Origin: Diplolepis rosae
Taxonomy: Eukaryota; Arthropoda; Insecta; Hymenoptera; Diplolepididae
Assembly (NCBI GenBank): GCA_030998225.1
Contig: JAPYXD010000678.1
Location: forward strand, 4,064,501-4,128,500
DNA length: 64,000 nucleotides
Reading direction: 5' to 3'
The position numbers and the translations under genes are program-made. Shown piece by piece: positions 9,070-27,029 of the stretch. Position 1 is the first letter of the stretch; every line of letters begins with the position of its first letter. Under the pieces are notes generated by a model. It was not told the DNA's origin and searched no databases. It saw only the letters and a program-made list of their open reading frames with translations.

Positions 9070-9831
9070 TGTTACGTCACAAGTACGTAAATACTTACTT
9101 TGATCGAAGATTCCTCGTTTTAAGTTAGGATCGAATGATCCTCTCTTAGGGATGAGGATAAGTCAATGAAAAGTACACAATGATTAGTAAAGTAATACAA
9201 ATTGAATTTATTTAAATTAACACTGATATAAACAAGGTTAAAATTTTACAATGATTCAAACAATGGCACAGGGAATAGGTAAAGAATAGAGAGAATTTTC
9301 GGTACCTTTGTTGAGTTGTGAATAGTCCCTTTTTTATGAATGATCCTCACAGGTGTGAGGGAGAGAGAAAGATTCTTCCACTGGTGCGACGAAGACAGCA
9401 ATAGGTATCCCACTGGTGTGAGGAAGACAGAAACAAATATCCCACTGGTGTGAGGAGGACAAGAATAGTTATTTCACTCTACACTGACTCTAAGATCCTT
9501 TCAAAGATTGAAAGTACAATCAGAGAATTTACGACACGTTTCTTCGGAAAACTGAACTAAACACGTATCTCACGCTGTGAATCCTTTTAAGATTTTAGAA
9601 ATTTCCCGCACTTAATTTTGCTCACAAGACTAGTTTTCCCTTGGCGGCGTGTCCTTTTTATATTATATTTTTTGGTGACGTCACGCGTTGCGCAGTCTCC
9701 CGCTGCGTGTGACGTAGTTATACCTCTCTTTTCAATAGGTGGTTTTCTCTCTCTTTTAGTAATTTCCCCAGATTTCTCTCTAGACCTAGCCTATGCCTAT
9801 AGTACATTCTAATGCGTCGCGGGACGTGACA
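9070..9831 (-). repeat. 3' LTR
   Basis: 762 bp with TG..CA ends (TGTTACGTC at one end, GACGTGACA at the other, imperfect inverted repeats). It matches the copy at 26268-27029 at a constant offset of 17,198 and I saw no difference by eye. On the transcribed strand it has a TATA-like box (9654-9662), a CRE palindrome (9676-9683) and an AATAAA signal (9207-9212). A row of degenerate repeats of about 32 bp with the core CCACTGGTGTGAGGA lies at 9343-9470. Confidence 0.93.
9207..9212 (-). terminator. AATAAA polyadenylation signal in the 3' LTR
   Basis: AATAAA reads on the transcribed strand, about 440 bp downstream of the TATA-like box and 138 bp from the LTR end, a plausible position for the 3' end of R. 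The copy in the 5' LTR is at 26405-26410. Confidence 0.5.
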
Positions 9832-9842
9832 CCTCCCCCCCT
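9832..9842 (-). other. polypurine tract
   Basis: On the transcribed strand AGGGGGGGAGG directly abuts the 3' LTR. A G-rich purine run at this place is the primer for plus-strand DNA synthesis in LTR retroelements. The next 420 bases upstream in transcription (9843-10261) form a non-coding 3' region. Confidence 0.88.
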
Positions 9843-10261
9843 AGTTCGAGCGCGGGGGTGAAGCATCCGCGATCGAATCTTCGGAAGAAGAATACATTCG
9901 TTAATGTTTTTGAAGATACATTGAATTTCTATTTCTGACGTAATAACCAACATTCATTTCGGCGTCTCTTTTACAATTTGTATTTTTTGCATTTGACTAT
10001 TTGATTCCAATATCGATTTTTTTTTTTTTGATGTCATAAAAATTTATATTATCTAAATATTATAATTTTTTTGTTATAAATAATTACATAGTTTTTTTTT
10101 GAAATAGTATGAACTTAACATAAGGTTACATATGATTTTTTCTTATATAACTAAATACATCAATAATTTTTATTTCATATTCGTAAATTATAAATATCAT
10201 TTAATATAAAATAATAATATATAAAACTGTAATATAAAACGTAATTTCATAATGTAGATTT

Positions 10262-10712
10262 TTAAGAATTATTTTTATATTTTCTATTACGTAAAGGGTT
10301 GCGGCAGTTATGAGCTAAATGCCCTCTTTGAAAACACCTTTCACAAGAGTTGGTCCATTTTGGCAAGGTTTCTTTACTGATTTCATCATTTATTTTGAAA
10401 ATTCTCGTTTCTGGGATTAAGCTTTTTTCTTTCATTTCTTCTAAAAATACATATCTTGTGGAAAGCATTTCCAAGAGTTTAGATGCTGCATTTTGCTTTG
10501 CAGACTTTTTTTTGAGGGGCTGGTTCCCCAATACAAGAAAAAGTTATTTTATTTTTAAAAATTTCGCAAGTCGCTTGGAACGGTGGCAGTTCTTGGTGTT
10601 TTCCAAGCGATTTTACAGTATATGAGGGTTCGGAGAAATCATACTCAATGCTTATCTCGTTTAAAACTTGTACAGCAGTGCCTTTCGATAGGTCTCTTGT
10701 CTGCAAGGCCAT
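10262..10712 (-). pseudogene. third dsRBD plus CCHC-knuckle gene, interrupted by a +1 frame change
   Basis: The ATG at 10712-10710 opens a frame to 10479 that encodes the N-terminal two thirds of a double-stranded RNA binding domain (helix 1 with VLNEIS, then the beta strands with SYTVKSLG and FQATCEIF). The frame changes by +1 at an 8-A run (10506-10513 on the + strand). The other frame, to 10262, carries the end of the domain (KKKSAKQNAASKLLEML, the usual basic helix 2) and a CX2CX4HX4C knuckle (CERCFQRGHLAHNC). The layout matches the intact gene at 14232-14816, so the two are probably paralogues. A 3' splice site lies at 10722-10724, 9 nt before the ATG. Whether the break is real, a homopolymer error or a recoding site cannot be told here. 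Confidence 0.75.
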
Positions 10713-10721
10713 TGTTTTTAT

Positions 10722-10724
10722 CTG
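10722..10724 (-). promoter_or_regulatory. 3' splice site before the third dsRBD gene
   Basis: On the - strand TTCTTTTGCAG precedes the ATG at 10712 by 9 nt. The pyrimidine run and CAG fit an acceptor for a spliced subgenomic RNA. Confidence 0.5.
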
Positions 10725-11075
10725 CAAAAGAATTACCTATTTGAGTTGATGATTGAATTTATTGAAATTCTAAAGTTAGTTAGTTTTTTTTTTGTAATAA
10801 TTTTGTGTTTGTTGATATATTCACTTTTCGCGTTTCCTAACTCAAAGAGATATTTCATGCAGAGAAAACAGTGGTCTGTTTTTAAGAACATTTTAATTTA
10901 TTAAGGTTTGTTGTTACATTATGGTGGTTAAGGAAGAAGTAGTGGTGTATATGAAATATGATTTTAAACAACGAATAAAAAATTAAAAGCGAAAATTTTT
11001 TAACAAAAGTTAGTAATAGATATTGTTTATATTTAGAAGAAAGAATAATAAAAAATATGTTTTGATTTATTATTT
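10725..11075 (-). other. intergenic part of the LTR element
   Basis: About 350 nt between two accessory genes, AT-rich, with no open frame that I can support. It would hold the branch point of the acceptor at 10722. Confidence 0.4.
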
Positions 11076-11507
11076 TTATTCGTCGTTGTTATAAATAATA
11101 GTCGATGCTTCGGAATCGACGTCGTTATACAGTGCTTCTTGTTGGTATAAATGAATTACACGTTCGGCACAAGTTACACATAAATCTGCTCTTTGCCGCA
11201 TGTAAAAAATTTGTGTATTGCAAATGGAGCAGTCGAGGCTAGATAGTTTTAACGTACAATATAAGTCTTTAGTAACTATGTGGTCTATTCGGACGGGTAA
11301 TGTTACTTCGGTTTCGAAAAAGCTGAGTTCTGTCATCCAACAATCTTCGCAAACAAGTTTTTTTTCGAGAACATTCATGTAAAAATTCTCGACCAGGGTT
11401 GTGCAGCAGTATTCTGACCATAATTGATTTTCAAAATACGGCTGAACATCCTGCTCGCTTGCTCGAACTTCTTCTGCTTCGATTGTTTCGATTTCTTGGG
11501 GCAGCAT
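11076..11507 (-). CDS. Cys-rich zinc-ribbon-like accessory protein (second paralogue)
   Basis: 143 aa from the ATG at 11507-11505. The frame is open further upstream, but this ATG lies 3 nt after a good 3' splice site (CCCCAACAG, 11511-11513) and its paralogue starts the same way. The C-terminal half has CSIC, 13 residues, then CVTC (CX2CX13CX2C), with Arg-Ala before the second pair; another CX2C (CEDC) lies upstream, and an acidic stretch (about residues 4-20) precedes it. The gene at 11646-12053 has the same CX2CX13CX2C spacing and the same Arg-Ala. Zinc binding is a safe guess; the family is unknown to me and no function can be given. No signal peptide or membrane segment. Confidence 0.7.
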   Translation of the reverse strand: MLPQEIETIEAEEVRASEQDVQPYFENQLWSEYCCTTLVENFYMNVLEKKLVCEDCWMTELSFFETEVTLPVRIDHIVTKDLYCTLKLSSLDCSICNTQIFYMRQRADLCVTCAERVIHLYQQEALYNDVDSEASTIIYNNDE

Positions 11508-11510
11508 TTT

Positions 11511-11513
11511 CTG
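11511..11513 (-). promoter_or_regulatory. 3' splice site before the second Cys-rich gene
   Basis: On the - strand the acceptor reads AAATTTCCCCAACAG followed by AAAATG, so the exon would begin three bases before the start codon. The paralogue at 12057 has the same AAAATG arrangement after its acceptor. Confidence 0.6.
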
Positions 11514-11645: not shown

Positions 11646-12053
11646 TCATGCAGGGGTATTTTCTACTAGAACTTCGTTTCCTTGACTAATTTCGAATTTA
11701 TAATTTAAATATTGTTCGATACATTCTCTACAATCAGCTGCTCTTTTTCGCGGAGTAATTAATAGTTCTTGACAACCGTAACAATTCATATATATGCATT
11801 CCAATTTACAAATGGAATGCCATGATGTAAAAAATTCACAGTTATTTTGAGTTTCCTCATCTAATTTCTCGAAACAGAATTGGCAATATCTTTTTGTGGT
11901 TTGGTGATTATAATATAAAAACAATGTTGAAGGTTCTAATTCGAAGCAATAACTCTATAATAAGTGCGCGTATGCTATCGGATAGTCTTGCGGACATACA
12001 CCGTCTACTGGTCCAAGATGGTTAACAATAGGTTCACTTGGAGTTGGTATCAT
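11646..12053 (-). pseudogene. Cys-rich zinc-ribbon-like accessory gene with an in-frame TAG (first paralogue)
   Basis: The ATG at 12053-12051 follows a splice acceptor by 3 nt. The frame reads 32 codons, meets TAG at 11957-11955, and continues open to the stop at 11646. Downstream it holds CQFC, a Cys-rich middle, then CYGC, 13 residues, CREC, the same CX2CX13CX2C as the gene at 11076-11507. At the place of the TAG the paralogue has Trp (TGG) in a matching context, so a single G-to-A change explains the stop. No other ATG gives the Cys-rich part, so it is either a fresh loss or made by read-through. Family not recognised; zinc binding inferred from the Cys pairs. Confidence 0.65.
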
Positions 12054-12056
12054 TTT

Positions 12057-12390: not shown

Positions 12391-14172
12391 TCAAAAGTTA
12401 AACGTTAAGTCGGTCAGTAAAGGTTTTGTCACTGAGCTTAAAGGAGTTTTTTGTATAAGTTCTATACGTGTTGGCGTTTTGTTTATTTTTTTAGATATTT
12501 TTTGAATTTTCAATAGTAATAATCCTAAAATTGTAATCATAAGTAAAGTGATAAAGATTAGTGCTAATGTTAATTTATGTGCACTAGAAATAAAAATTGA
12601 TGGAATGATTTTTTGAATGTTTGCATATTTTGTAAGGATAAAGACATGGTTTTCGAAGATTGATAATGGCATGTCTTCTTTTTGCTGAAGAAGAAGTAAT
12701 ACCTTTTTTAGTAAGTGAGGCTCTTGAATGGAAATATTATATAAAAATGGTGAAATTATAGCAAGGGAAGTAGTTGATTTGCTGACTGGAATTGAATTAT
12801 CCATTATATTCAAATGGTTTTGAAGATGGTAATATGGAGTTGATGAATCTAGATTGCAACCTGATTTTGTTTGCAAAATTCCTATTCCTTGGAGTGTGAT
12901 TAAGGTCTTAGAGTTTTTTCGACATGATAAGAAAATTTGTCGGGGGAAAATTGTTGAGTATAGCCATCCATGATGAAATTGCAATGGTGTTAGAAAGGGA
13001 TATTCACTAAAACTGATGAATATTTTACACTTGTATGGTTCTGAATTTAGAAACATTGATGTTTCACAAATAGGATTGTTATCGATGTTAGATATAGATC
13101 TTGGTGGGTGACAAAATGTTTGGAATCCATTTTGATAACATGCATTGAGGAAATTTTCATTTGTTATAAAGTATGATTGGTTATTTGAAGAAATAGCGAG
13201 ATAAGAATTTTGAGGTTTTATGTAAATAGAGGAAATTACGTCAGTATTAAAATCGAGATGTATTGGAATTGGATGTGGTTTAAATAATTGAAATTCTTCA
13301 GCAGATGGGATTGGTATAGTCATAATAAAAATCAAGTACTTATCGAATAAGAAGTATTGTATTTTAGAAAATGGAAGGACCATAGAAAAAAGGGATGTTG
13401 AAAGGTGTGGGTCTTTTTTGTTGGATTTGAAGTCTAAGAAGGTATCAGGAAGTAGCATAGGGTGCCATAAATTAGTTGCGGCATGAGTAATAGCTTCTGT
13501 AAGTTGGTCAAGGAGTAAAAGAAAAGATTGAGAAATTTCATGCAGGTCTTTAAGCCAATTTGCTGCTAATATTCGATATAGGTGAATATTTGGATCTTTT
13601 TGAGAATTATGCCATTTTTTGTAGGTCATAATGTTGTCAAGTTTTGAAGAAAGATTTGCAACTTTTTGGAAAAATGGATTAGGAAGTAGAAATAAATTTT
13701 CTTTGGGCCAGTAAAGGGAGGTTTCATTTCTCATTCTTAATTCTAAAAGTACTTTTTGTATCTGTTGCAAGAATGGATCATTAGTGTTAGAAATATTCGT
13801 GATATTACGAGCTTGTCTAGATATAAATGATATTTCTTCAAGAAAATAGTTGATGCGTTGTTCTATAAAATCAAGTTGTGTCTGATGATCGTATAAATTA
13901 CAATTATTGGCAATATTTGAGAGTATGCAATATTCATATAATTTATGTGAGAAATCTATTATTTTGTATTTAAGTACGTCTGGCTGAAAGATATCGATAT
14001 AAGATATAAAATGATATTTTTCAGAAAAAAGACGAACTTTTGAAATTGGTTCAAAATAAATCCCTGAAGAATGAGAAAATTGTGAGTCTATGAAGTATTT
14101 TTCTGCTTTGGAGAAAAGGAGTGGAATTAAAATTAAATACACTCTGGATGCTAGTTGATTAAGGAAATTCAT
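12391..14172 (-). CDS. env2: second envelope glycoprotein, baculovirus-F / errantivirus-Env-like
   Basis: 593 aa. A hydrophobic signal peptide (residues 9-21, LASRVYLILIPLL) is followed by an ectodomain with the Baculo_F-type opening GIYFEPISKVRLFSEKYHFI, long predicted helices with many Leu/Ile (about 60-240), several NxS/T sites, and a Cys-rich end including LITLQGIGILQTKSGC, the Cys-bearing strand typical of insect errantivirus Env proteins. A membrane anchor (about 546-568, LALIFITLLMITILGLLLL) and a short cytoplasmic tail follow. In this family the protein is a class I fusion glycoprotein. I do not see a clear furin site. The ATG lies 16 nt after a strong 3' splice site. It is open and apparently complete; family assignment is from conserved motifs and topology. 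Confidence 0.82.
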   Translation of the reverse strand: MNFLNQLASRVYLILIPLLFSKAEKYFIDSQFSHSSGIYFEPISKVRLFSEKYHFISYIDIFQPDVLKYKIIDFSHKLYEYCILSNIANNCNLYDHQTQLDFIEQRINYFLEEISFISRQARNITNISNTNDPFLQQIQKVLLELRMRNETSLYWPKENLFLLPNPFFQKVANLSSKLDNIMTYKKWHNSQKDPNIHLYRILAANWLKDLHEISQSFLLLLDQLTEAITHAATNLWHPMLLPDTFLDFKSNKKDPHLSTSLFSMVLPFSKIQYFLFDKYLIFIMTIPIPSAEEFQLFKPHPIPIHLDFNTDVISSIYIKPQNSYLAISSNNQSYFITNENFLNACYQNGFQTFCHPPRSISNIDNNPICETSMFLNSEPYKCKIFISFSEYPFLTPLQFHHGWLYSTIFPRQIFLSCRKNSKTLITLQGIGILQTKSGCNLDSSTPYYHLQNHLNIMDNSIPVSKSTTSLAIISPFLYNISIQEPHLLKKVLLLLQQKEDMPLSIFENHVFILTKYANIQKIIPSIFISSAHKLTLALIFITLLMITILGLLLLKIQKISKKINKTPTRIELIQKTPLSSVTKPLLTDLTFNF

Positions 14173-14231: not shown

Positions 14232-14816
14232 TTACATATGGTTTGATTTAGGTCTAGAAGTTTTTTGGAGAAAAGGGGAAAAAAGTCTACTAAATGTTGA
14301 GGAGTTTCTTGGTGGAACTGGAGGGGGGAATTGGGTTGATTTGTCTACCTTAAAAATATTTCGTCTACGGCACTCTTTTGTAGCATGCATTTGAGTGTTA
14401 CAAAATCTACAGGAATTTTCCCAAGGTATTAATTTTGGTCTTGGATCGGTTTGAATACTTTGATTTTTGGTTTTTTGCCTTTTTTTATCATCATTATTAT
14501 AAAATTTTTCGTCGCAGAGATCGTATGATCTTATTAGTAGCAATAATAATTTTAAAGCTGCTCTATTTTCTGCTAATTCACTAGTAGGGCCGGCTTGTAT
14601 AACGAAATGTTCATTTATATTAATTTGTGCGAGAAAAAATGAGTTTGTTTTCGAATTCGGATCAGGATAGACTGTATATTGCGGTAACGGCAGTCCATAT
14701 TTTATCGTGAAGTTTCTTAAAATTTCTACATGATTTAAAAATCCCATGGAGTCTGTTCTGTATTTCTTTTTTGGGTAACTTGGTACGTGTGTAGGCTCGT
14801 CGTAGTAATGCTCCAT
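14232..14816 (-). CDS. dsRBD plus CCHC-knuckle accessory protein, intact
   Basis: 194 aa from the ATG at 14816. Residues 24-95 form a dsRBD: helix 1 FLNHVEILRNFTIKYG, strands around PLPQYTVY and FFLAQININEH, loop QAGPTSE and helix 2 LAENRAALKLLLLL. The basic KKxAK part of helix 2 is replaced by ELAEN, so RNA affinity may be reduced or altered. Residues 136-149 are a CX2CX4HX4C knuckle (CRFCNTQMHATKEC). A Pro-rich stretch (PPPVPPR, 164-170) could bind SH3-like partners. No signal peptide. Dicistrovirus and other insect-virus suppressors of RNAi also use dsRBDs, so binding dsRNA against Dicer is a reasonable inference; packaging or RNA chaperone work is an alternative. It is one of three such genes in this element. 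A weak acceptor (14830-14832) precedes it. Confidence 0.8.
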   Translation of the reverse strand: MEHYYDEPTHVPSYPKKKYRTDSMGFLNHVEILRNFTIKYGLPLPQYTVYPDPNSKTNSFFLAQININEHFVIQAGPTSELAENRAALKLLLLLIRSYDLCDEKFYNNDDKKRQKTKNQSIQTDPRPKLIPWENSCRFCNTQMHATKECRRRNIFKVDKSTQFPPPVPPRNSSTFSRLFSPFLQKTSRPKSNHM

Positions 14817-14853: not shown

Positions 14854-15592
14854 TTAGAATTTATTGTACTGGTTGGGAGGTCTATATCCGCATTTAAAAC
14901 ATTTTTTAAAGCTTTTCGTAGAGAAAGATGATGCAGTATGATTATTATTTGTTTTCATTTTATATGAATTTGTATTTTTATCACGATTGTTATTTGAAGT
15001 AATAGGTTTTGTTATTTGGCTACTCGTTGAAGGTTTTGGATCGTTTATAGATGATTCTTGAATTGTTACATGCAAATGTTCTAGTGAGTTTATCAAACGT
15101 AGTTCACATTTCTCGTCTTTATGCGAAAGAGAATTAATAACTTTTATGGCAGCAAAATCCTTAGCTGTTTTTATTGAGTTTGCTATTCCTATTTGTTTAA
15201 TGTTATTAATGAAACAAATTGCTATGTATGTTGAGTCTTTTGATGAGGTTTTTATTCGTAATACTGTATATTTTGGATACTCAAATTTATTTTCAGTGCA
15301 AATTTCGTTTAATTTTTTGCAATTTTTACTAATAGAGTTTGGTTGGACGTTTTGATTTGTTTCCTTTGATTCATTAATTAAGGCATTATATAAATTTTGT
15401 GCTACCTTTTTGCTTTACATTTTCTTTATCTTTGCCACTATTCATTATTATAAAATTTTTATATTGTAAATTAACGTGAAATAGACATTCATTATTATTG
15501 GTTTGTTCAATGAGTATCTCATAAATCAGGGGTGGATCTCCTCTTTGTTGAATAATTTTGTTTAGTAAGGTTGTAAAAGGAACATGCGACAT
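14854..15592 (-). pseudogene. tandem-dsRBD accessory gene, interrupted by a +1 frame change
   Basis: The ATG at 15592-15590 overlaps no other gene and lies one base after an acceptor. Its frame, to 15386, encodes most of a first dsRBD (helix 1 FTTLLNKIIQQRG, strands IYEILIEQ and LFHVNLQYKNF). The frame changes by +1 near a 5-A run (15407-15411 on the + strand), between TAA at 15417-15415 in the second frame and TAA at 15388-15386 in the first. The second frame then stays open to 14854 and carries the end of helix 2, a complete second dsRBD (around EYPKYTVLRI, then FINNIKQIGIA and KTAKDFAAIKVINSL), a Ser/Thr/Asn-rich linker, and half a zinc knuckle (CFKC) without the following His and Cys. The break sits in the same helix as the break of the gene at 10262-10712. 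Confidence 0.72.
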
Positions 15593-18042: not shown

Positions 18043-18140
18043 GAATAATGTGTTATGTCTGAAAATTCATTTTTATTTTGTTTTATATATATTTTTTATT
18101 TTATATATAAAACATATATTTTCATAACCAAAAAAAAAAA

Positions 18141-18305
18141 TATTTTAAAGAATTTGAAAATCTTTCTGTGGAAAAAATGACGCTTTCGACTGCGCTGGGA
18201 TTCGAGCCCAGGTCTTTCGATTGCCGGTCGACTTTCGGGCTCGAATCCCAGCGCAGTCGAAAGCGTCATTTTTTCCACAGAAAGATTTTCAAATTCTTTA
18301 AAATA
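18141..18305. repeat. 69-bp perfect inverted repeat made of SINE sequence
   Basis: Arms 18141-18209 and 18237-18305 are exact reverse complements as far as I can read, with a 27-nt spacer that still holds tRNA-like words (TCTTTCGATTGCCGGTCG). Each arm covers the B box end of the SINE family of 2660-2899 and its CCACAGAAAGATTTTC body. In the RNA of the LTR element this would be a long perfect hairpin between pol and the CARD gene. Confidence 0.8.
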
Positions 18306-18386
18306 TTAAATTTATTTGCATTATTTGCGATATAAGAGTTTGCAATTGTCTACGAGGACACCTGTCGACAACGTATCCTATCTGAT
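18237..18386 (+). mobile_element. 5'-truncated SINE nested in the LTR element
   Basis: Begins in the tRNA part (GGGCTCGAATCCCAGCGCAG) and ends at the same TATCCTATCTGAT as the copy at 2660-2899. It is in the opposite orientation to the LTR element. The region 18387-18610 after it is AT-rich and ends near a TA microsatellite (18528-18560) just beyond the pol stop. Confidence 0.7.
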
Positions 18387-18532
18387 ACGCGACTAGTGAT
18401 CCTCCGATAATGTAGGCAGTGACAAAAATTTCAAACTCAACTAATTAATTCAAAATTAAAAAATTTTATTTTTTATACTTTTACTATTTATCGACAAAAT
18501 AAAATTTCTATATCTTATTTAAGTTGTATATG

Positions 18533-18610: not shown

Positions 18611-21600
18611 TTACTTTTGTACTTGCACATGTGAGCGTTTTAGTCTATTAATGTGGACAACAGTAGGTTTGCCTTTATAGCTTATTTTGACATTCCCGTT
18701 TCCTAACACTTCCAATATTTCATAAGGCCCTGTATAATGGCTGTCAAGTTTTTTAATTTTTCCTCCTTTTAATAAAAACACGTAATCTCCAATTTTTACT
18801 TCTAAAGGACTTATTTTTTTGTCATAATATAATTTCGATTTTTCTTTTGCTGAAATAAGATTTTCTCTTGCTTGTGTTCGCATTTCATGTAGTTGTGTTA
18901 CGAAATTAATTAAATAATCGTCATATGTTTGTAATTTTTCTTGTTGTGATAAAGGTTCACTGGAAGGTTCACGAGCTAGTTTACCAAAAACCAATTCATA
19001 GGGTGTGCATTTTGTGCCTTCATGTACACTAGTATTATATGAGAACATTGCTAGTTCAAGCCAATCATCCCATTCTGAATTTTTTGCAACAAATTGTTTG
19101 AGATATTCTCCTAAAACATGATGTGAACGTTCTAATGACCCGTTTGATTGAGGGTGAAATGCTGTGGTACGAAATTGTTTAATTCTAAAACGTTTTGCCA
19201 ATCTTTTTAATAAATTACTTAAAAAATCTCTGCCTTGGTCAGTAAGTACTCCTTTCGGTGATCCAAATATGCAAATAAATTTTTTCACGAAAGCATCTGC
19301 TATCGTACTAGCTTGGTGATTAGGAAGAGGTATTGCTAAAGAATATTTGGTAAAATTGTCTTGTATCGTTAGAATATATAAGTTACCAGATTTTGTTTCA
19401 GGTAGTGGACCAACAATGTCCATTGATATTTTTTCAAAAGCAGTAGTGGGTGTGTCAGTGATTACCATAGGGTTTTTTGTTTTGACTCTGATTAATTTTT
19501 TCAGTTGACATTGTAAACAGCCTTGAATATATTTTTGAATGTCTACTTTCATATTTTCCCAAAAAAATTTTTGGCGAATTCGGCTATAAGTTTTTGTAAC
19601 GCCTTTATGGCCTCCTAATGCTGAGGAGTGAGCTTCTTCAATTAAATGAGTTCGTTGTTCCTTTGTTGGATATTGCGTTATTCCATTGCAAACTATAATT
19701 TTTGTAGTTGAATTTGAAAAAATTGAATCGAAAATTGATTTCACTTCTTCCCAAGGTATATGATTAATTCTGGAAGTTTTTGATATACTAATAGATCGTA
19801 ATTTAAATTTTTGAGATAATTCATGTAATGAATGAATTGATAATTTTATATTATTTAAAGTTTCAGATAAATTATCTTTAGTTTCTTCTTCAATTGGAAG
19901 TGCAAAATGGTAGTAGTTTCCTTTTTTAATCTCTTTTGCTATCCCCTTTTGTAAATTTTTAAATTTTGGTAAAGTTTCACGTTTTTCTAAAATTTTTGAT
20001 CCGTTGTCGCGAGGAGTTCCATTTGTTGTAACAAAATATGCATAATTATCTTTTCGCATAGTTAATTGATCGCGACATTCAACTAAATTTTTCTTTGTTA
20101 TAATTTTTTCTGTTTGAGAGTTTATAGGAGGAGGTTCTGGGGGTGGACGATTATAATTATCATGATCTTTATCGATTTTTTCACAATTTATTTGAGATCT
20201 TCGGTTTAATCTCAAATTTTCTTCAAAATAAGGCTCTTCAAATTCTTCTTCCAATTTTTCTTCTTGGTTTTCTTCAAACTTCTCATCAAAATTTTCCTCA
20301 AGATTGTCTTCAAAATTTTCTTCAAAATTCTGTTCGAAATTCTTTTCAAAATCGTCTTCAAGATCATCTTCAAAATTCTCTTCCCAATTTTCTTCATAAT
20401 TTTCTCCATCATTTCCTTCGTGTGAGGTTTCAATGTCGTTGATTTCATCTTCTGAGGTTGAAAAATAATTCTCACTTTCTTCACTTTCAAATTCATTAAT
20501 ATTTTTTGGCTTCTTGGCATTCTTCTTCTTTTTATTTTTGGCTTGAGTTTGTTTCAAATAATCTAAATAATCAGGATCAGAGTCGGAATCTGATTCTACT
20601 TTTGTTCGGCTTCCCTTTTGCACATTTATTTCTGGTAATTCGTTTTCAAACATTTGTTTTCTTGGCCTACCTCTCTTTCTTTTTGTTTGAGAGGGAATAT
20701 TTTTCAAATTTTTTCTTGGCCTACCTCGTGGTTTTTTCATAAGAGGTTTAGAAGAAAAATTTTCGTCTAATTTTTCTTGAGTTTCGTTTCGATTCAAATT
20801 TTTTGCTTTTTCTTGCTCTATTCTCTTTTGAGCTCTCGTAGTAATAGTTTTCCATGATAAATTTTCGTATTTTTTGGAAAACACTGGACTTAATAAAAAT
20901 ATTGTCATAAAAATAAGTCTTGAAGCCATATTTTTGAATAAATTTGTGTATTTTAAAATATTCTTACCAATCTCACTAAATAATTCTTCACTAAGAAATT
21001 CCTGGAAATATTCTGGGATTTTTGAGTCGATATTTAATATTTGGGCTTCCGAAATTTCGCTAAAACGATCTACGTCGTCTGGTACGATTTCTGGATTCAA
21101 GTTTCTTCGTTTTGAAGGTCTTACCTCATTTTTAGAGTTTTCTTGTTTTTTTCTTGTAAAAGTTTTCTTTGAAAACATTTTTTCTTGGGAAGTCATAAAA
21201 GTATCATTGGCGTCAACTTGTAAATATCTTGATTTCTCTTTGTTATCATCAATAGGGTTTCTTGAGAGAGCGTCTGCATTTACATTCATTTTTCCTGCTT
21301 TGTAAATTACATCAAAATCATATTCTGCGAGTTTCAGTCTCCAACGTGAAACTCGTGAACAAGGGTCTTTAGAATTTTGAAACCAAACTAGAGGTTTGTG
21401 ATCAGTCACTAAAGTAAATTTTCTCCCATACAAATAAGGACGAAAATGAGTTACACAAAATATTATAGCAAGAGCTTCTTTCTCATATGTATCATATTTT
21501 TTCTCAGTATCACTTAGACTACGTGAAGCATATGCTATTGGCTTATCTTTACCTATTTTACCTTGTGATAAAATACCTCCTATTGCAAATCCTGAGGCAT

Positions 21601-23368
21601 CTGTTGTGAGTATAAAAGGTTGAGAAAAATCAGGTCGTTGTAAAAGTGGTTCTTCACATAATTTTGCTTTTAAAATTTCGAAAGCTGCTTGTTGTTTTTC
21701 TGTCCAATTAAAATGTGTATCTTTTTTCAGAAGTTGATTTAAAGGACTTGCAATTTTTGAAAATCCATCAATAAATCGTCTATAATATCCTGCTAAGCCT
21801 AAAAATTGTTTAACATTTTTCTGTGTTTTTGGGACTGGAAAGTTTTTTACAGCTATTATCTTTTTTGGATCTGGACGTACTCCATTTTTATCAATTATAT
21901 GACCTAAATATCCTACTTCAGGTCGTAAAAATTCGCATTTGTCTGGTTGTAAGTGAAGATTTGCTTTTCTAAGTCTTTCTGCTAAATTGTTAAATTTAAT
22001 TTCGTGCTCTTCTAGAGTATTTGCATATATAACTATGTCATCGAGATATACAAAAAGTTCCGTTCCTATTAATCCAGTTAATGTTAAATCCATTAATCTT
22101 TGAAATGTGGCAGGTGCAGTTTTTAAACCGAAAGGCATTCTATCGAATTCGTAATGACCGTGAGGTGTAGAAAACGCGGTTTTATGCGAGTCTTTTGGAT
22201 CCATTTTTATATGGTGAAAACCGGTAGCTAAATCAAACACTGAAAAATATTTTGCTGATCCTAGAGAATCAAGTATATCGTTTATATTAGGTAAAGGATA
22301 CGAATCGCCAATTGTTTTTTCATTTAATTTACGAAAATCAAGAACCATTCTCCATTTTATTTTTCCTTGAGAATCAGGTTTTTTAGGAACTATCCACACT
22401 GGAGTGTTATATGGTGATTGTGAGGGCTTGATTATTTTATTTTTTAATAATTCATCGACTTGTCTTGTAATTTCTTCCTTGTGAACTGGGGGAAATCTAT
22501 ATTGTCTTGAAAAAATTGGAGCGTCATCTACAGTTGGAATTGAATGTTGTAATACATTAGTAGCTTCAAGTGGTTCTCCTGGGATTTGAAATCTGTCTGC
22601 ATTATTTTTAATTAATTTTTCTACATGTTCATATTCATCTTGATTTAAATGGTCTAATCGAAGAAGTTTTTTAATACATTCTACTCTGTCTTCGTCTGTT
22701 ACATTATAAAATTTGCATGAGTTAATTAGAGAATTGTCAGTTTTTAAAAAGTTATTTAATATTTTACTTGATAAATCTTCGTTATTTGTTTGTTTGAAAT
22801 TAATTAAATTTTCAATTTGTTTATAGCATTCTTGTTCTTCAAAGTCTTCTAAATTAACTAATGGGACGGATAATGTAATTGGGATTTCATTTGTGTTTGC
22901 AAATTTTAAATAAGCTTTTCCTCTGTGATTTTTTACAACTGCGTCACCTACGTAGACGCCATCTTGGATATGTAATCGAGGTACATACCCTTCACTCTTT
23001 TCTGTATTTTTTATATTAACATAAAATGTTGTAACTGTTCGAGCTGGAATAGTAAATGTATTGGTAGATTTAAAAGGGTAACAGTGGTTCTCAATTTCTA
23101 AGCATTTTGAAGTATAGTTTATATTCACTCTGTTATCTTGAAAAAATTCTGATCCCAATACTCCATCTTCTTCTACTGGGACTTCATTCGGAATAATGTT
23201 AAATATTGTTGGGTAACCAAAAATGTTTATTTTTACTTGTCCTAATGTGTAAAGTGGTAAATCATTAATTCCTGTAAGTTTTAATACGTTTTGGCTATTT
23301 ATTGGTACTTCAGGGTTGAGAACCTTTTGTTTAATTAAATTTCGAGCAGCACCAGTATCAATCATCAT
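18611..23368 (-). CDS. pol: Pol polyprotein: protease, reverse transcriptase, RNase H, integrase, with a large charged insert
   Basis: 1585 aa counted from the first Met. The frame is open upstream past the gag stop and lies in the -1 frame to gag, so it is probably made by -1 ribosomal frameshifting. Aspartic protease DTGA is at 4-7; RT has RMVLDFRKLN, FDRMPFGLK and YLDD (441-444); RNase H has TTDAS (about 587) and VTDHKPL. An insert of about 500 residues follows: a hydrophobic segment (814-831), two AT-hook motifs (GRPRK, about 880-905), an acidic Glu/Asp/Phe/Asn-rich run (about 960-1070) and PPPEPPP. Integrase has the zinc H..H..CLQC part (about 1235-1287), the D, D and E in MDIVGP, LTDQGRDF and GSLERS (about 1315, 1377, 1412), and a GPYEI (GPY/F) motif near 1546. 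It copies RNA into DNA and integrates it. All catalytic residues are present. Confidence 0.95.
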   Translation of the reverse strand: MMIDTGAARNLIKQKVLNPEVPINSQNVLKLTGINDLPLYTLGQVKINIFGYPTIFNIIPNEVPVEEDGVLGSEFFQDNRVNINYTSKCLEIENHCYPFKSTNTFTIPARTVTTFYVNIKNTEKSEGYVPRLHIQDGVYVGDAVVKNHRGKAYLKFANTNEIPITLSVPLVNLEDFEEQECYKQIENLINFKQTNNEDLSSKILNNFLKTDNSLINSCKFYNVTDEDRVECIKKLLRLDHLNQDEYEHVEKLIKNNADRFQIPGEPLEATNVLQHSIPTVDDAPIFSRQYRFPPVHKEEITRQVDELLKNKIIKPSQSPYNTPVWIVPKKPDSQGKIKWRMVLDFRKLNEKTIGDSYPLPNINDILDSLGSAKYFSVFDLATGFHHIKMDPKDSHKTAFSTPHGHYEFDRMPFGLKTAPATFQRLMDLTLTGLIGTELFVYLDDIVIYANTLEEHEIKFNNLAERLRKANLHLQPDKCEFLRPEVGYLGHIIDKNGVRPDPKKIIAVKNFPVPKTQKNVKQFLGLAGYYRRFIDGFSKIASPLNQLLKKDTHFNWTEKQQAAFEILKAKLCEEPLLQRPDFSQPFILTTDASGFAIGGILSQGKIGKDKPIAYASRSLSDTEKKYDTYEKEALAIIFCVTHFRPYLYGRKFTLVTDHKPLVWFQNSKDPCSRVSRWRLKLAEYDFDVIYKAGKMNVNADALSRNPIDDNKEKSRYLQVDANDTFMTSQEKMFSKKTFTRKKQENSKNEVRPSKRRNLNPEIVPDDVDRFSEISEAQILNIDSKIPEYFQEFLSEELFSEIGKNILKYTNLFKNMASRLIFMTIFLLSPVFSKKYENLSWKTITTRAQKRIEQEKAKNLNRNETQEKLDENFSSKPLMKKPRGRPRKNLKNIPSQTKRKRGRPRKQMFENELPEINVQKGSRTKVESDSDSDPDYLDYLKQTQAKNKKKKNAKKPKNINEFESEESENYFSTSEDEINDIETSHEGNDGENYEENWEENFEDDLEDDFEKNFEQNFEENFEDNLEENFDEKFEENQEEKLEEEFEEPYFEENLRLNRRSQINCEKIDKDHDNYNRPPPEPPPINSQTEKIITKKNLVECRDQLTMRKDNYAYFVTTNGTPRDNGSKILEKRETLPKFKNLQKGIAKEIKKGNYYHFALPIEEETKDNLSETLNNIKLSIHSLHELSQKFKLRSISISKTSRINHIPWEEVKSIFDSIFSNSTTKIIVCNGITQYPTKEQRTHLIEEAHSSALGGHKGVTKTYSRIRQKFFWENMKVDIQKYIQGCLQCQLKKLIRVKTKNPMVITDTPTTAFEKISMDIVGPLPETKSGNLYILTIQDNFTKYSLAIPLPNHQASTIADAFVKKFICIFGSPKGVLTDQGRDFLSNLLKRLAKRFRIKQFRTTAFHPQSNGSLERSHHVLGEYLKQFVAKNSEWDDWLELAMFSYNTSVHEGTKCTPYELVFGKLAREPSSEPLSQQEKLQTYDDYLINFVTQLHEMRTQARENLISAKEKSKLYYDKKISPLEVKIGDYVFLLKGGKIKKLDSHYTGPYEILEVLGNGNVKISYKGKPTVVHINRLKRSHVQVQK
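20961..20970 (-). promoter_or_regulatory. candidate 5' splice site inside pol
   Basis: On the - strand ATTGGTAAGAAT matches the donor consensus well. It lies shortly before the hydrophobic segment of the Pol insert. If used, a spliced RNA would still carry gag and most of pol. No direct support; listed because a donor must exist for the downstream acceptors. Another candidate is TTGGTAAAG in the leader (25683-25690). Confidence 0.25.
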
Positions 23369-23487
23369 GTGTGTTGGGTTTTTTAAACCTTCCGTTGATA
23401 TTATAATTGATGGAATTGAAGTGGACTTTGAAATATTTATTGTTGTTGTTGTATGATCGTTAGAATTGGATGCCAGTGGTTCTCGAT

Positions 23488-25353
23488 TTATGCTTTCCTC
23501 AGTGCACCCGTGCTGGGGAGAGCTTTGGAGTTTTCCTGATGAGCTGTTTGTGATTGGCTATTTGGTCGTATCTTGCAGTCTCGTACTAAATGACCGGGTT
23601 TTTTACAATAATTGCAAACTACTTCAGTATAATTTGAATTTTGTTGATTATTATTATTTTGTAAAAACCTATATTCATATGGTTTATTTCGATTTTGAGA
23701 CTGTCCTAAGTTAAAGTTTTGATACTGTCCTGGATTCCATTGTCTATTATTATTATTAACATTATTGTTATTATTGTAAAAATTTCTAGGAAAATTGTTA
23801 TTATTGTTGTGTCTTTGTTGTAAAACATTATTATTATTGTTTTTATAATTATTATTTCTATTTTGCAAATTATTATTGTTATTGTTATTAAAATTATGAT
23901 TTTTATTTCTTAAAAAATTGTTATTCGAAAAATTATTGTAATTGTTTCTTGCAAAATTATTATTATTATTACTTCTTTGACCATTGAAATTACTATATCC
24001 TTGTTGGTTAGGACGCAACAAAAAATTTTTTTGTTTATTATTAAAAACTGCATCTTGAGCTTTACTTAAATGAAAACATTTTTCAGTTGTGTGACCTGGT
24101 TTTTTACAAATTAAACAAATAGTTTTGTTTTCAAGTGCTACGTTAAATCGGGTTGTTTTGTTATTTTTATTATTAGATGATTCGTCACTTTTTGAATAAT
24201 CCATATTTTTATTTCTTCGTAGTGCGGAATTTGCAGCTAATCTTCGTTCTATATCAATACTGTCGCTAATAACTTCTTTAAAAGTATCCTTTTCTTCAAC
24301 ACGAATTTCTAACTCAGGACGCAAACCGCGTATAAAACATTGAATTACGTCTTTTTCAAGGTTTACTTTAAAATTATTATCTACCTGACCATTATTATTG
24401 AGCCTGTGAGCATCTTCGATTTTGTCGGCAATTTCTTTTATCCTAGCAGCATAGGAAAGTACATTTTCTCTTTCCCACATAAATGTATTACCTAATTCTC
24501 CCTGTAACTGGTACACGCTTTTCGCAGGGGCATATACTCTTTTCAATTTTTCTATCAATTCTTCTATTGTTGTATAAGTAGAACCAAAAATGCATTTTCT
24601 GGCTTCTCCAGTTAATTTACCTCTTAATAGCCTTGCGAGGTTTTCTTGAGCTGCAGGTGTCGGTAGCATTGCCTTTGCCTCCATGCAACCCTCAATAAAA
24701 TGTGACAATGGGAGGTTACTTCCGTCAAACAATGGGACCACCTCTAGCGCGTCGCGTAAGGATACCTGCTGGCTGTTGGGTATGACCACGGCCATCTCTT
24801 CGTTATTTACTCTTACGGGATTATCCTGATTTATGGCTTCTGTGTCGCTTTTGTCGTCGTCGCTATCGTTGTTACTAATTATAGATTCGCGTGCCAATGA
24901 GGTTTCCAATCTTTCTTTCAAAGTTTTATTATCTACTGTTATTACTGTTGAGCTTAGCAAATTGAATTCGTCAAAATAAGATAATTCATTCGTTAGAGTT
25001 TGATCTTGATTACTGGATCCTGTTACAATGCTTAAATCTGGACAGAAACTTGAATGAAAGCCGCTAGTTTTTTCTGAATTTTCACGTGATATATTTTGAT
25101 TATTAATTAGAGTCTTGTCTAAACTTGAATCATCTAACTTAAGAGTGTTATCTAATTCTTGTTCTGTAGGGATTGGATCAGGGATATTTTGGCATTTATT
25201 ATCAGTTGAATATTCTCTATTTCTAATTGGTTTTATTTTTAAATTACCCTTTTGATTCAAATCTACTATTTTTGCAAGCTGACTATCGTGTTTAGCTTGA
25301 CTACGTGTTATAACTTTCGGGGTAGATTCTAAAGGGATATTTGGTTTTGACAT
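23488..25353 (-). CDS. gag: Gag polyprotein with two zinc knuckles
   Basis: 621 aa, ATG at 25353. The N-terminal 185 residues are polar and acidic. Residues about 200-330 show the Ty3/gypsy Gag (retrotrans_gag) capsid pattern, with LRGKLTGEARKCIFG, EELIEKLKRVYAP and ELGNTFMWERENVLSYAARI. Two CX2CX4HX4C knuckles follow: CLICKKPGHTTEKC (about 412) and CNYCKKPGHLVRDC (about 578), separated by a long Asn-rich, low-complexity region. Gag forms the particle and packs the RNA; knuckles bind nucleic acid. The stop at 23488 lies inside the open pol frame, 120 nt before the first Pol Met. I did not find a textbook slippery heptamer at the overlap. Confidence 0.94.
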   Translation of the reverse strand: MSKPNIPLESTPKVITRSQAKHDSQLAKIVDLNQKGNLKIKPIRNREYSTDNKCQNIPDPIPTEQELDNTLKLDDSSLDKTLINNQNISRENSEKTSGFHSSFCPDLSIVTGSSNQDQTLTNELSYFDEFNLLSSTVITVDNKTLKERLETSLARESIISNNDSDDDKSDTEAINQDNPVRVNNEEMAVVIPNSQQVSLRDALEVVPLFDGSNLPLSHFIEGCMEAKAMLPTPAAQENLARLLRGKLTGEARKCIFGSTYTTIEELIEKLKRVYAPAKSVYQLQGELGNTFMWERENVLSYAARIKEIADKIEDAHRLNNNGQVDNNFKVNLEKDVIQCFIRGLRPELEIRVEEKDTFKEVISDSIDIERRLAANSALRRNKNMDYSKSDESSNNKNNKTTRFNVALENKTICLICKKPGHTTEKCFHLSKAQDAVFNNKQKNFLLRPNQQGYSNFNGQRSNNNNNFARNNYNNFSNNNFLRNKNHNFNNNNNNNLQNRNNNYKNNNNNVLQQRHNNNNNFPRNFYNNNNNVNNNNRQWNPGQYQNFNLGQSQNRNKPYEYRFLQNNNNQQNSNYTEVVCNYCKKPGHLVRDCKIRPNSQSQTAHQENSKALPSTGALRKA

Positions 25354-26235
25354 TGAGTCATTATAAATTTACAATATTTTGTATTGAGCGTTGATTGTTT
25401 ATTGTTATTTTAAATTTGTTTATAACAATAAAAAAAAACTATACATAAAATTTGTTTTTTTAAGAAAAATAAAATGAGATTAGTAAAATTTATTTTTAAT
25501 TTGTTTATTTATTTTTAATAACAATATAATTTGAAATGAAATTTGTATTTCGTCATTTGAAAATAAAATAATGATATAAAAATATAATTATTTCAAATAT
25601 TCAAATTAAATAAATAATCGCTCAATTGTTTGTAAATTTATAATTTTTAATAATAAATTTCTTAAAATAATAAAATATTTTTCTTTACCAACTGCATGTG
25701 CCCTTTATGTAAAATTAAAATAATTTATTTTATTTATTTATAAATTGTTTATAACAATTAAACAAATTTGTTTATAATAATGATCATTAGAAATATTCAT
25801 AAATTATTTTTATTATATTGGAAAAGTTAACTTAAGTGCAAATCTTTGGACAAAAAATTTTTTTTGCAAATAAAAATATTCTGTTTTTTTTTATGTTTGT
25901 TTTAACTTAAATCAAAACTTGGTTAACAAATTAGAATATCTTTTTAAATAAGATAAGTTACTTAATCACTTAGGTTAGCCTCAAGGTCAGATCTCTGCGT
26001 GATTTTTCAAACTTATTTTATTTTTTAAACAATTTATATAAATTATAAAATTTCAAAGAAATGATCTGATTATTAAATCATTAAGGTTAGCCTCAAGGTC
26101 AAATCCCTTTGTGATCTAACAAATCTATTTTATTGAAATTTTAAGTTTTAAAGTTGAAATAATATTTCATAATCATTTATTTATTTATTTATTTATTATT
26201 AAGAACCAATGTGTTCAATTTCAATTGACTTGTGT
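25354..26235 (-). other. leader (5' untranslated region) of the LTR element
   Basis: About 880 nt between the primer site and the gag ATG. Very AT-rich, no open frame. The words TTAGGTTAGCCTCAAGGTCA (25972-25991) and a close repeat (26083-26102) occur twice, about 111 nt apart, as part of a longer direct duplication ending in GTGATTT or GTGATCT. The leader should hold the packaging signal and the major splice donor; TTGGTAAAG at 25683-25690 is a candidate. Confidence 0.5.
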
Positions 26236-26253
26236 TTCCCGGCCGATGCACCA
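26236..26253 (-). other. primer binding site for tRNA-Gly (GCC)
   Basis: On the transcribed strand TGGTGCATCGGCCGGGAA is the exact complement of the last 18 nt, CCA included, of animal tRNA-Gly(GCC), whose acceptor stem is GCATCGG/CCGATGC. It starts 14 nt inside the element from the 5' LTR. Well known errantiviruses use tRNA-Lys or tRNA-Ser, so Gly is unusual. Confidence 0.85.
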
Positions 26254-26851
26254 GAATAAAGGAAGTATGTTACGTCACAAGTACGTAAATACTTACTTTG
26301 ATCGAAGATTCCTCGTTTTAAGTTAGGATCGAATGATCCTCTCTTAGGGATGAGGATAAGTCAATGAAAAGTACACAATGATTAGTAAAGTAATACAAAT
26401 TGAATTTATTTAAATTAACACTGATATAAACAAGGTTAAAATTTTACAATGATTCAAACAATGGCACAGGGAATAGGTAAAGAATAGAGAGAATTTTCGG
26501 TACCTTTGTTGAGTTGTGAATAGTCCCTTTTTTATGAATGATCCTCACAGGTGTGAGGGAGAGAGAAAGATTCTTCCACTGGTGCGACGAAGACAGCAAT
26601 AGGTATCCCACTGGTGTGAGGAAGACAGAAACAAATATCCCACTGGTGTGAGGAGGACAAGAATAGTTATTTCACTCTACACTGACTCTAAGATCCTTTC
26701 AAAGATTGAAAGTACAATCAGAGAATTTACGACACGTTTCTTCGGAAAACTGAACTAAACACGTATCTCACGCTGTGAATCCTTTTAAGATTTTAGAAAT
26801 TTCCCGCACTTAATTTTGCTCACAAGACTAGTTTTCCCTTGGCGGCGTGTC

Positions 26852-26860
26852 CTTTTTATA
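26852..26860 (-). promoter_or_regulatory. TATA-like box of the 5' LTR
   Basis: TATAAAAAG on the transcribed strand, about 170 nt inside the LTR. Transcription would start some 25-30 nt downstream, around 26825, giving a U3 of about 200 bp. Confidence 0.5.
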
Positions 26861-26873
26861 TTATATTTTTTGG

Positions 26874-26881
26874 TGACGTCA
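26874..26881 (-). promoter_or_regulatory. CRE/ATF palindrome in the LTR
   Basis: TGACGTCA, the full CREB/ATF site, lies 14 nt upstream of the TATA-like box. CREB/ATF factors answer stress, cAMP or immune signals; whether this controls the element is inference. The same site in the 3' LTR is at 9676-9683. Confidence 0.5.
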
Positions 26882-27029
26882 CGCGTTGCGCAGTCTCCCG
26901 CTGCGTGTGACGTAGTTATACCTCTCTTTTCAATAGGTGGTTTTCTCTCTCTTTTAGTAATTTCCCCAGATTTCTCTCTAGACCTAGCCTATGCCTATAG
27001 TACATTCTAATGCGTCGCGGGACGTGACA

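What the first reader, a model, noticed from the sequence alone, without database searches (positions are those of the whole stretch)
9070..27029. An 18-kb insect gypsy-type element built like a complex retrovirus
Beyond gag and pol it carries about eight extra genes in one orientation between intact LTRs: CARD-only, two glycoproteins, three dsRBD genes, two Cys-rich genes. Known errantiviruses are 7-9 kb with one env. I know of no described insect retroelement with this set. LTRs, primer site, polypurine tract and CATT duplication show it is one mobile unit and not a chance cluster.
Basis: partly seen in the sequence, partly recalled or inferred. Interest (0 to 1): 0.97.

Follow-up and report, generated by a model that had tools for sequence, protein, structure and literature searches.

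The report
Insect retrovirus carrying captured defence genes
A genome that is likely an insect's holds many near-identical copies of an 18-kb retrovirus-like element with two unrelated envelope-type genes and genes resembling RNA-interference and cell-death proteins, which are predicted to blunt the host's defences.

Summary
Window 9070-27029 (minus strand) is one LTR-bounded Ty3/Gypsy provirus of 17,960 bp with identical 762-bp LTRs, a CATT duplication, a tRNA-Gly-like primer site and a polypurine tract. Downstream of gag-pol lie eight same-strand accessory genes: CARD-only, class-III-type (Monjiviricetes) glycoprotein, dsRBD-A, dsRBD-B, baculovirus-F-type glycoprotein, Cys-1, Cys-2, dsRBD-C.

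The 14 LTR pairs taken from the 757.7-Mb genome all hold the cassette; two have large deletions, two small truncations. Three divergent families share IN-CARD-GP1; two of them keep the order on to dsRBD-C, without a detected Cys-2. CARD passes Pfam's cut-off in those families and is nearest Dronc in the PDB; the dsRBDs are nearest TARBP2, Loquacious and R2D2, partly weakly. Replacement changes are constrained between families. Accessory start codons tend to follow splice-acceptor-like sites.

The window's copy is damaged: three accessory frames are interrupted, and a ~311-nt hairpin-bearing insertion is not shared by the copies compared. Function, expression, infectivity and host name are untested; the closest paper (Chary & Hayashi, eLife 2025) was not readable. 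New variant of envelope-carrying gypsy elements, resembling complex retroviruses.

The parts
26268..27029 (-). 5' LTR (762 bp)
   Evidence: 0 mismatches to the 3' LTR; a 401-bp part of the LTR is identical to 40 of 40 scored places elsewhere
9070..9831 (-). 3' LTR (762 bp)
9066..9069 (.). target-site duplication CATT, left
27030..27033 (.). target-site duplication CATT, right
26236..26253 (-). primer binding site TGGTGCATCGGCCGGGAA (tRNA-Gly-like, recalled)
   Evidence: same 18 bases in the family 2 and family 3 copies examined
9832..9842 (-). polypurine tract AGGGGGGGAGG
   Evidence: equivalent tract before the LTR-start motif in families 2-4
23488..25353 (-). gag, 621 aa with CCHC-type knuckle (zf-CCHC 20.6 bits, just below the cut-off of 20.8)
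18611..23557 (-). pol (PR-RT-RNaseH-integrase), about 70-nt overlap with gag in another frame
19739..21271 (-). about 510-aa stretch between RNase H and integrase with two RGRPRK (AT-hook-like, recalled) motifs and an acidic tract
   Evidence: motif pair also in the family 2 and family 3 copies examined
18140..18450 (-). about 311-nt insertion in this copy, holding a near-perfect hairpin (about 18139-18307)
   Evidence: hairpin absent from 14 of 14 other copies; insertion bounds from 5 of them; fold -129.2 kcal/mol, z -20
17753..18034 (-). CARD-only gene, 93 aa
   Evidence: Pfam CARD over cut-off in three sister families, below it in this copy; PDB profile best hit Dronc
15603..17633 (-). GP1, class-III-type glycoprotein (Monjiviricetes_fusion), 676 aa, TM-like segment about residues 546-575
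14854..15592 (-). dsRBD-A, two dsRBDs; frame interrupted in this copy
   Evidence: 245 aa uninterrupted in 10 of 14 other copies
14232..14816 (-). dsRBD-B, 194 aa, dsRBD plus CCHC-type knuckle (by eye)
12391..14172 (-). GP2, baculovirus-F-type glycoprotein, 593 aa, RQAR at residue 119, TM-like segment about residues 536-554
11646..12053 (-). Cys-1, Cys-rich gene; frame interrupted in this copy
11076..11507 (-). Cys-2, 143-aa Cys-rich gene, likely paralogue of Cys-1
   Evidence: no match in families 2-4
10262..10712 (-). dsRBD-C, dsRBD plus CCHC-type knuckle; frame interrupted in this copy

Best explanation
This is a 17.96-kb Ty3/Gypsy provirus, copied many times in its genome, whose eight-gene accessory cassette is predicted to make it work like a complex retrovirus in a host that is likely an insect. 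Likely mechanism: genomic RNA gives Gag and Gag-Pol, and alternatively spliced RNAs would give each accessory protein. GP1 (class-III type) and GP2 (baculovirus-F type) would serve membrane fusion and attachment in cell-to-cell spread, as env-F does in Drosophila errantiviruses. The dsRBD proteins, nearest to the Dicer partners TARBP2, Loquacious and R2D2, would bind or divert double-stranded RNA or Dicer complexes and so suppress RNA silencing. The CARD-only protein, nearest to Dronc, CED-3 and caspase-9 prodomains, would act as a decoy that blocks initiator-caspase recruitment. The Cys-rich proteins have no assigned role; zinc binding is a guess. Shown: one LTR-bounded unit, many copies at independent sites, conserved cassette order, constraint on the seven genes compared between families, domain matches, and an excess of acceptor-like sites ahead of start codons. 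Inferred: splicing, entry, RNAi suppression, caspase blocking.
For: Unit and copies: identical LTRs, TSD, PBS, PPT; 40 of 40 scored LTR places identical over 401 bp, 28 of them forming 14 pairs; cassette in 14 of 14 pairs, two with large deletions and two with small truncations; own TSDs at 3 of 3 pairs whose flanks were held, and at one solo LTR. Each accessory frame is full length in 6 to 12 of 15 copies. Deep conservation: IN-CARD-GP1 in three more families, order on through dsRBD-C, without a detected Cys-2, in families 2 and 3; the family 3 copy has 1227-bp LTRs, TSD ATAC and about 18.07 kb. Selection: pN/pS 0.21-0.78, upper bounds below 1 in 14 of 14 gene comparisons; among young copies 22 silent and 21 replacement codons in five accessory genes, p=1.5e-4. 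Domains: CARD 30.9, 30.3 and 29.4 bits against cut-off 23.9; dsrm 34.2 (family 2 dsRBD-A) and 34.9 (family 3 dsRBD-C) against 23. PDB: Dronc E=0.0034, then CED-3 0.029; 10 of 16 listed chains are initiator caspases; TARBP2 0.013, R2D2 0.009, TARBP2 4e-10 and Loquacious 1e-7 for a related 204-aa dsRBD family. Acceptors: rank-combined p=2.6e-4, 4.1e-4 and 0.016 in families 1-3.
Against: No expression, particle or functional data. The window's copy has three interrupted accessory frames, and many other copies have interruptions; assembly errors in homopolymers cannot be excluded. No convincing splice donor in family 1; no usable acceptor for dsRBD-A in family 2 or dsRBD-B in family 3, and weak ones for CARD and dsRBD-A in family 3. 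GP2 shows no constraint among young copies (16 replacement, 5 silent), and the family 2 GP2 has no Pfam match. The CARD and dsRBD-B of the window copy are below Pfam's cut-offs; dsRBD-C of family 2 is below it too (15.9 bits). 6 of 16 PDB matches of the CARD profile are unrelated proteins, and only Dronc is below E=0.01. AlphaFold models of CARD (pLDDT 58) and Cys-2 (35) are too weak to support a fold. The PDB matches of dsRBD-A and dsRBD-B are weak. The 14 pairs were picked because their LTRs match the window's. Decoy and RNAi-suppressor roles rest on resemblance alone.
Confidence: 0.6

Rival explanations
1. An ordinary envelope-carrying gypsy element that has passively picked up passenger genes: the cassette is mobile but most accessory genes do nothing.
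For: Many frames are interrupted in individual copies; GP2 looks unconstrained among young copies; Cys-2 was not matched in families 2-4.
Against: Order kept in divergent families and replacement changes constrained in the seven genes compared; pooled young-copy test p=1.5e-4.
Confidence: 0.12
2. The dsRBD proteins are structural or packaging cofactors (nucleocapsid-like, dsRBD plus CCHC) and not silencing suppressors, and the CARD protein assembles particles or signals instead of blocking caspases.
For: dsRBD-B and dsRBD-C carry CCHC-type knuckles like Gag nucleocapsid (dsRBD-C, below Pfam's cut-off; dsRBD-B by eye).
Against: Nearest solved relatives are RNAi loading cofactors and initiator caspases, though weak in part.
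Confidence: 0.25
3. A domesticated host or symbiont locus (for instance a virus-like particle cluster) that spreads its genes in LTR form.
For: Both glycoproteins stay open in a number of copies (GP1 in 62 of 68 places scored; GP2 full length in 7 of 15).
Against: Insertions with their own TSDs, a solo LTR and identical LTRs show retrotransposition; at least 68 GP1 places, not one locus.
Confidence: 0.03

Closest known systems
Insect errantiviruses / iERVs with env-F (gypsy, ZAM, Tirant; Senti et al. 2025, PMC12992720, passages read)
   Same: Ty3/Gypsy pol order, gag-pol overlap, F-type envelope related to baculovirus F, env described there as made from spliced RNA
   Different: Those passages describe one env as the third ORF; here 18 kb, a second unrelated glycoprotein, CARD, three dsRBD and two Cys-rich genes, tRNA-Gly-like PBS
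Anakin, BEL/Pao plus chuvirus glycoprotein in mosquitoes (Dezordi et al. 2020, PMC7642597, passages read)
   Same: LTR element carrying a Monjiviricetes/chuvirus-type glycoprotein
   Different: BEL/Pao, with the chuvirus glycoprotein as its envelope gene; here Gypsy. PMC10084718 (passages read) reports no clear evidence of such capture by Gypsy
Gypsy elements with type III fusion glycoproteins (Chary et al. 2026, PMC13172572, passages read; citing Chary & Hayashi eLife 2025, not readable)
   Same: Gypsy with class-III-type glycoprotein
   Different: The passages read mention no second env, CARD or dsRBD; the cited eLife paper may hold closer relatives
Complex retroviruses of vertebrates (HIV, HTLV, foamy viruses; recalled)
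   Same: Several accessory genes downstream of pol, likely reached by alternative splicing
   Different: Different gene set, Gypsy-type pol, no homology of accessory genes claimed

Membership tests
Ty3/Gypsy (Metaviridae) | LTRs, PR-RT-RNaseH-integrase order | tested here: met
   (the protease is placed by position and by conservation, not by a Pfam match)
Ty3/Gypsy (Metaviridae) | Placement in a named clade by RT phylogeny | not tested
   no named reference sequences were at hand
Errantivirus-type (env-carrying gypsy) | F-type envelope gene | tested here: met
   GP2 Baculo_F 81.7 bits, cut-off 24.1; 80.3 in family 3; no Pfam match in the family 2 GP2, which aligns at 26-27% in 6 of 6 copies (one copy also has a short piece at 32%)
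Errantivirus-type (env-carrying gypsy) | about 7-9 kb with one env (recalled) | tested here: not met
   17.96 kb, two glycoproteins, six other genes
Errantivirus-type (env-carrying gypsy) | tRNA-Ser or tRNA-Lys primer (recalled) | tested here: not met
   PBS reads as tRNA-Gly-like by recall; no tRNA gene of the host was compared
Errantivirus-type (env-carrying gypsy) | env translated from spliced RNA | tested here: inconclusive
   acceptor-like sites at start codons, no clear donor in family 1, no RNA data
Anakin-type (chuvirus glycoprotein in LTR element) | Monjiviricetes glycoprotein inside LTRs | tested here: met
   (GP1 full or nearly so in 13 of 14 pairs, a 126-nt piece in one)
Anakin-type (chuvirus glycoprotein in LTR element) | BEL/Pao backbone | tested here: not met
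   no BEL/Pao-specific model matched in the Pfam scan of pol; the matches are of the kind found in Gypsy pol (that reading is recalled)
CARD-only proteins | CARD as the sole domain | tested here: met
   three families over cut-off, 92-93 aa, no other Pfam family at E<=0.1; window copy below cut-off
CARD-only proteins | blocks caspase recruitment | not testable with these tools
   needs binding or apoptosis assay
dsRBD silencing suppressors | dsRBD by profile match over cut-off | tested here: met
   dsRBD-A second domain in the window (29.3 bits), dsRBD-A of family 2 and dsRBD-C of family 3; dsRBD-B only below cut-off
dsRBD silencing suppressors | suppresses RNAi | not testable with these tools
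   needs reporter assay

The most novel reading that the evidence does not exclude
A whole lineage of complex insect retroviruses exists: Gypsy proviruses of about 18-21 kb that pair two unrelated fusogens with host-derived mimics of the Dicer partners Loquacious/R2D2 and of the Dronc CARD, expressed by multiple splicing, and that defeat RNA silencing and apoptosis to invade the germline.
Probability: 0.4. Interest if true: 0.95.

Novelty: new variant of a known kind. Interest (0 to 1): 0.88.

Why it matters
Complex retroviruses are known from vertebrates (recalled). A Gypsy lineage that evolved the same plan separately, with genes resembling RNAi cofactors and initiator-caspase prodomains, would show that insect endogenous retroviruses can carry direct counter-defences against small-RNA silencing and cell death. 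It would also give a tractable case of two unrelated envelope proteins kept together in one provirus, and it bears on a published statement (PMC10084718, passages) that no clear capture of Jingchuvirales glycoproteins by Gypsy elements was found.

Tried and rejected
Relatives in IMG/VR: GP1 (5 pattern matches, none confirmed) and CARD alignment (29, none confirmed). AlphaFold for CARD (mean pLDDT 58.4) and Cys-2 (35.4): too weak, so no fold search was made. PDB by sequence: the single CARD gave one designed protein, GP2 none, the Cys-2 profile one GPCR fusion entry that I do not believe. NCBIfam: one weak unrelated match. Hairpin as a viral RNA element: rejected, absent from 14 of 14 other copies; four Rfam matches, none at its gathering score. 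LTR pair of the family 4 copy: not found. Splice donor: U5 GTAAGT in family 1 only; TGG|GTAAGG shared by the family 2 and 3 copies but missing in family 1; unresolved. The splice scores use base frequencies written from memory. In one search the 'within 20 nt, score above -2' count (8 of 8, 4 of 7, 3 of 6) used a threshold set after seeing family 1, so only the rank-combined values are leaned on. Rows dropped: copies with an indel or stop in the gene (3 to 12 of 15 aligned without indel, by gene) and codons with more than one change (1 in Cys-1, 2 in GP2). Host name: telomere and COX1 searches did not complete; not established. Paper searches for prior reports; Chary & Hayashi 2025 not held.
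Full report
What is there. Window 9070-27029 is a minus-strand provirus. The LTRs are 762 bp and identical, flanked by CATT on both sides. A PBS-like 18-mer follows the 5' LTR by 14 nt and a G-rich tract precedes the 3' LTR. gag (621 aa) and pol (1585 aa from the first ATG) overlap by about 70 nt in different frames. Pfam gives RVT_1, RNase H, integrase zinc and core domains. Between RNase H and integrase lies an unusual stretch of about 510 aa with two RGRPRK motifs and an acidic tract; the motif pair is also in the family 2 and family 3 copies examined.

The accessory cassette. In order from pol to the 3' LTR: CARD (93 aa); GP1 (676 aa, Monjiviricetes_fusion, E=7.7e-248, model positions 6-649 of 653); dsRBD-A (two dsRBDs); dsRBD-B (194 aa); GP2 (593 aa, Baculo_F, E=5.9e-23); Cys-1; Cys-2; dsRBD-C. 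dsRBD-B (by eye) and dsRBD-C carry a CCHC-type knuckle. Cys-1 and Cys-2 look like paralogues (28% over 36 residues, E=0.003 for the single comparison). GP1 and GP2 each have a TM-like segment in the C-terminal part, and GP2 has an RQAR site at residue 119.

The window's own copy is not whole. dsRBD-A, Cys-1 and dsRBD-C are interrupted here, while uninterrupted versions exist elsewhere. Full-length frames among 15 copies (14 plus the window): CARD 12, GP1 6 (one more is a residue short), dsRBD-A 10, dsRBD-B 7, GP2 7 (one more runs on longer), Cys-1 9 (one more is longer), Cys-2 9, dsRBD-C 7 (the window's CARD, GP1, dsRBD-B, GP2 and Cys-2 counted). An insertion of about 311 nt (18140-18450) holds a near-perfect hairpin (-129.2 kcal/mol, z -20). 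The hairpin is absent from 14 of 14 other copies; the insertion's bounds come from five of them. A related half-hairpin lies near 2740-2830, so it is likely a nested host repeat.

The own genome has 757.7 Mb in 428 contigs. An LTR query of 401 bp gave 40 scored places of 1014 candidates, all 40 identical; 28 form 14 pairs, 12 of them 16.4-16.9 kb apart, one 12.5 and one 29.1 kb, and 12 places are single. The window's own LTRs are not among the 40, so the list is a sample of ties. The accessory half was fetched for all 14 pairs. Eight genes were sought in 14 copies and matched at 96-100% identity. Exceptions: one copy lacks CARD, dsRBD-A and all but 126 nt of GP1; another lacks parts of Cys-1 and Cys-2; a third lacks the first 46 nt of CARD and a fourth the last 80 nt of GP2. 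Flanks held for three pairs show their own duplications (GTAG, ATTT, CAAG), and a solo LTR shows ATAT; the seven whole LTRs of 762 nt compared have 0 or 1 mismatch to the window's and an eighth is 761 nt long. This excludes a chance cluster or a single misassembly. The pairs were chosen by LTR identity, so they say nothing about older copies.

Divergent families. Pfam CARD against the genome gave 9 matches, all over cut-off (61 of 61 candidates scored). Eight lie beside GP1 and integrase of three other families (six copies of family 2, one each of families 3 and 4); one is a host gene (Dlg5-like by recall). CARD identity to the window's is 45-46%, 55% and 57% in families 2, 3 and 4. In the six family 2 copies and the family 3 copy the order CARD-GP1-dsRBD-A-[B]-GP2-Cys-1-dsRBD-C is kept; no Cys-2 match was found in families 2-4; family 4 is degraded and shows CARD, GP1 and dsRBD pieces but no GP2 or Cys-1 match. 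The six family 2 copies are near-identical and count as one line. dsRBD-B of family 2 was matched in one of six copies; an ORF at that place in another copy has only a weak dsrm match (E=0.08). The family 3 copy (C269) has LTRs 97.5% identical over 1227 bp, TSD ATAC, the same PBS and a span of about 18.07 kb. The family 2 copy C358 would be about 21.5 kb if its LTR is 1413 bp, which was not settled. No LTR pair was found for the family 4 copy. RT-RNase H is 85-90% identical to families 2 and 3, integrase 75-89% to families 2-4.

Scale. GP1 model search: 68 of 68 scored places (2274 candidates) score 823-844 bits and 62 of 68 have no stop. The dsrm model: 149 matches of 150 scored (1563 candidates); about 70 rows, counted by eye, have frames of exactly 204, 244 or 262 aa (24, 37 and 9), which marks repeated families. 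The one 244-aa frame read is close to dsRBD-A (80-97%). The 204-aa frame has a dsRBD plus knuckle; one relative of it sits in a long frame that also holds integrase at 53% identity, so another Gypsy lineage here likely carries a dsRBD gene too. Protein searches found 49, 37 and 52 clusters related to dsRBD-B, Cys-2 and CARD, all but one listed from ENA contigs without a name.

Selection. Between families 1 and 3, pN/pS is 0.21 (GP1) to 0.58 (GP2, dsRBD-A); between families 1 and 2, 0.33 to 0.78; all 14 bootstrap upper bounds lie below 1. Silent sites are close to saturation, so ratios and not rates are meant. Cys-2 was not compared. Among young copies with open, ungapped frames, five accessory genes show 22 silent and 21 replacement polymorphic codons against an expected replacement share of about 0.755 (p=1.5e-4); GP1 has 5 and 7, GP2 5 and 16, and the Cys-2 comparison had no variation in 3 copies. 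Gene by gene, one-sided p falls below 0.05 only for dsRBD-B and dsRBD-C.

Domain identity. CARDs of families 2-4 score 30.9, 30.3 and 29.4 bits against a cut-off of 23.9. A CARD profile against the PDB lists 16 chains at E up to 10: 10 are initiator caspases, led by Dronc (E=0.0034) and CED-3 (0.029); the other 6 are a xylanase and T4-lysozyme entries, which I take as chance. dsRBD-B is nearest TARBP2 (0.013), dsRBD-A's second domain nearest R2D2 (0.009), and the 204-aa family nearest TARBP2 (4e-10) and Loquacious (1e-7). AlphaFold gave no usable model.

Expression. Each of the eight start codons in the window has a YAG acceptor-like site 1-16 nt upstream. Against all 147 ATGs of the region the rank-combined p is 2.6e-4; in family 2 (seven genes) 4.1e-4, in family 3 (six genes) 0.016. 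Against this: no acceptor for dsRBD-A in family 2, none of YAG type for dsRBD-B in family 3, and weak scores for CARD and dsRBD-A in family 3. GP1, GP2 and dsRBD-C have acceptors in all three families, at 2-3, 16-21 and 9-23 nt. No donor is shared by all families. Spliced env RNAs are described for Drosophila iERVs, with upstream exons before or within gag (PMC12992720, passages).

How it likely works. The anatomy fits a retrovirus-like cycle with two glycoproteins for spread between cells, dsRBD proteins that resemble RNAi loading cofactors and could suppress silencing, and a CARD that resembles initiator-caspase prodomains and could block them. These roles are inferred. GP1 is the conserved glycoprotein and GP2 the fast-changing one, which would fit a fusogen plus an attachment protein; that is a guess.

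Comparison and novelty. Baculovirus-F envelopes are described for Drosophila gypsy ERVs (PMC12992720, passages). Chuvirus-type glycoproteins are reported in BEL/Pao Anakin (PMC7642597, passages). PMC10084718 (passages) found no clear capture by Gypsy, whereas PMC13172572 (passages) says that gypsy elements also have type III fusion glycoproteins and cites an eLife paper that I could not read. In ten paper searches no listed title or abstract start showed CARD or dsRBD genes in such elements; beyond the passages named I saw listings only, and of PMC12440569 (Troyka) the outline and abstract. I therefore call it a new variant of a known kind. The host being an insect is likely from the Dronc-like CARD and the glycoprotein types, but no call names it.

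Noticed in passing
18140-18450: Insertion with a near-perfect hairpin whose stem resembles a half copy near 2740-2830; likely a palindromic host repeat, possibly with a TA duplication.
   Followed up: partly
19739-21271: A stretch of about 510 aa with two RGRPRK AT-hook-like motifs and acidic repeats between RNase H and integrase; motif pair also in the family 2 and 3 copies examined. It could influence integration-site choice.
   Followed up: partly
L045, L047: A Gypsy relative (integrase 53% identical over 99 residues) in the same genome lies in one frame with a dsRBD-plus-knuckle gene close to TARBP2/Loquacious; 24 rows of the dsrm search have the same 204-aa frame length (counted by eye, two read).
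   Followed up: partly
L032-L035, L038, L039: Family 2 elements show the polypurine tract plus LTR-start motif twice, about 1.3 kb apart, in 6 of 6 copies; the LTR length is unsettled.
   Followed up: partly
46661-47089 and 52074-52463: Exon-like open frames that resemble a fatty-acid amide hydrolase (recalled) among palindromic repeats.
   Followed up: no
27030-64000: Dense inverted and direct repeats (for example arms 28704-29264 and 34369-34929, 97% complementary) around the element.
   Followed up: no
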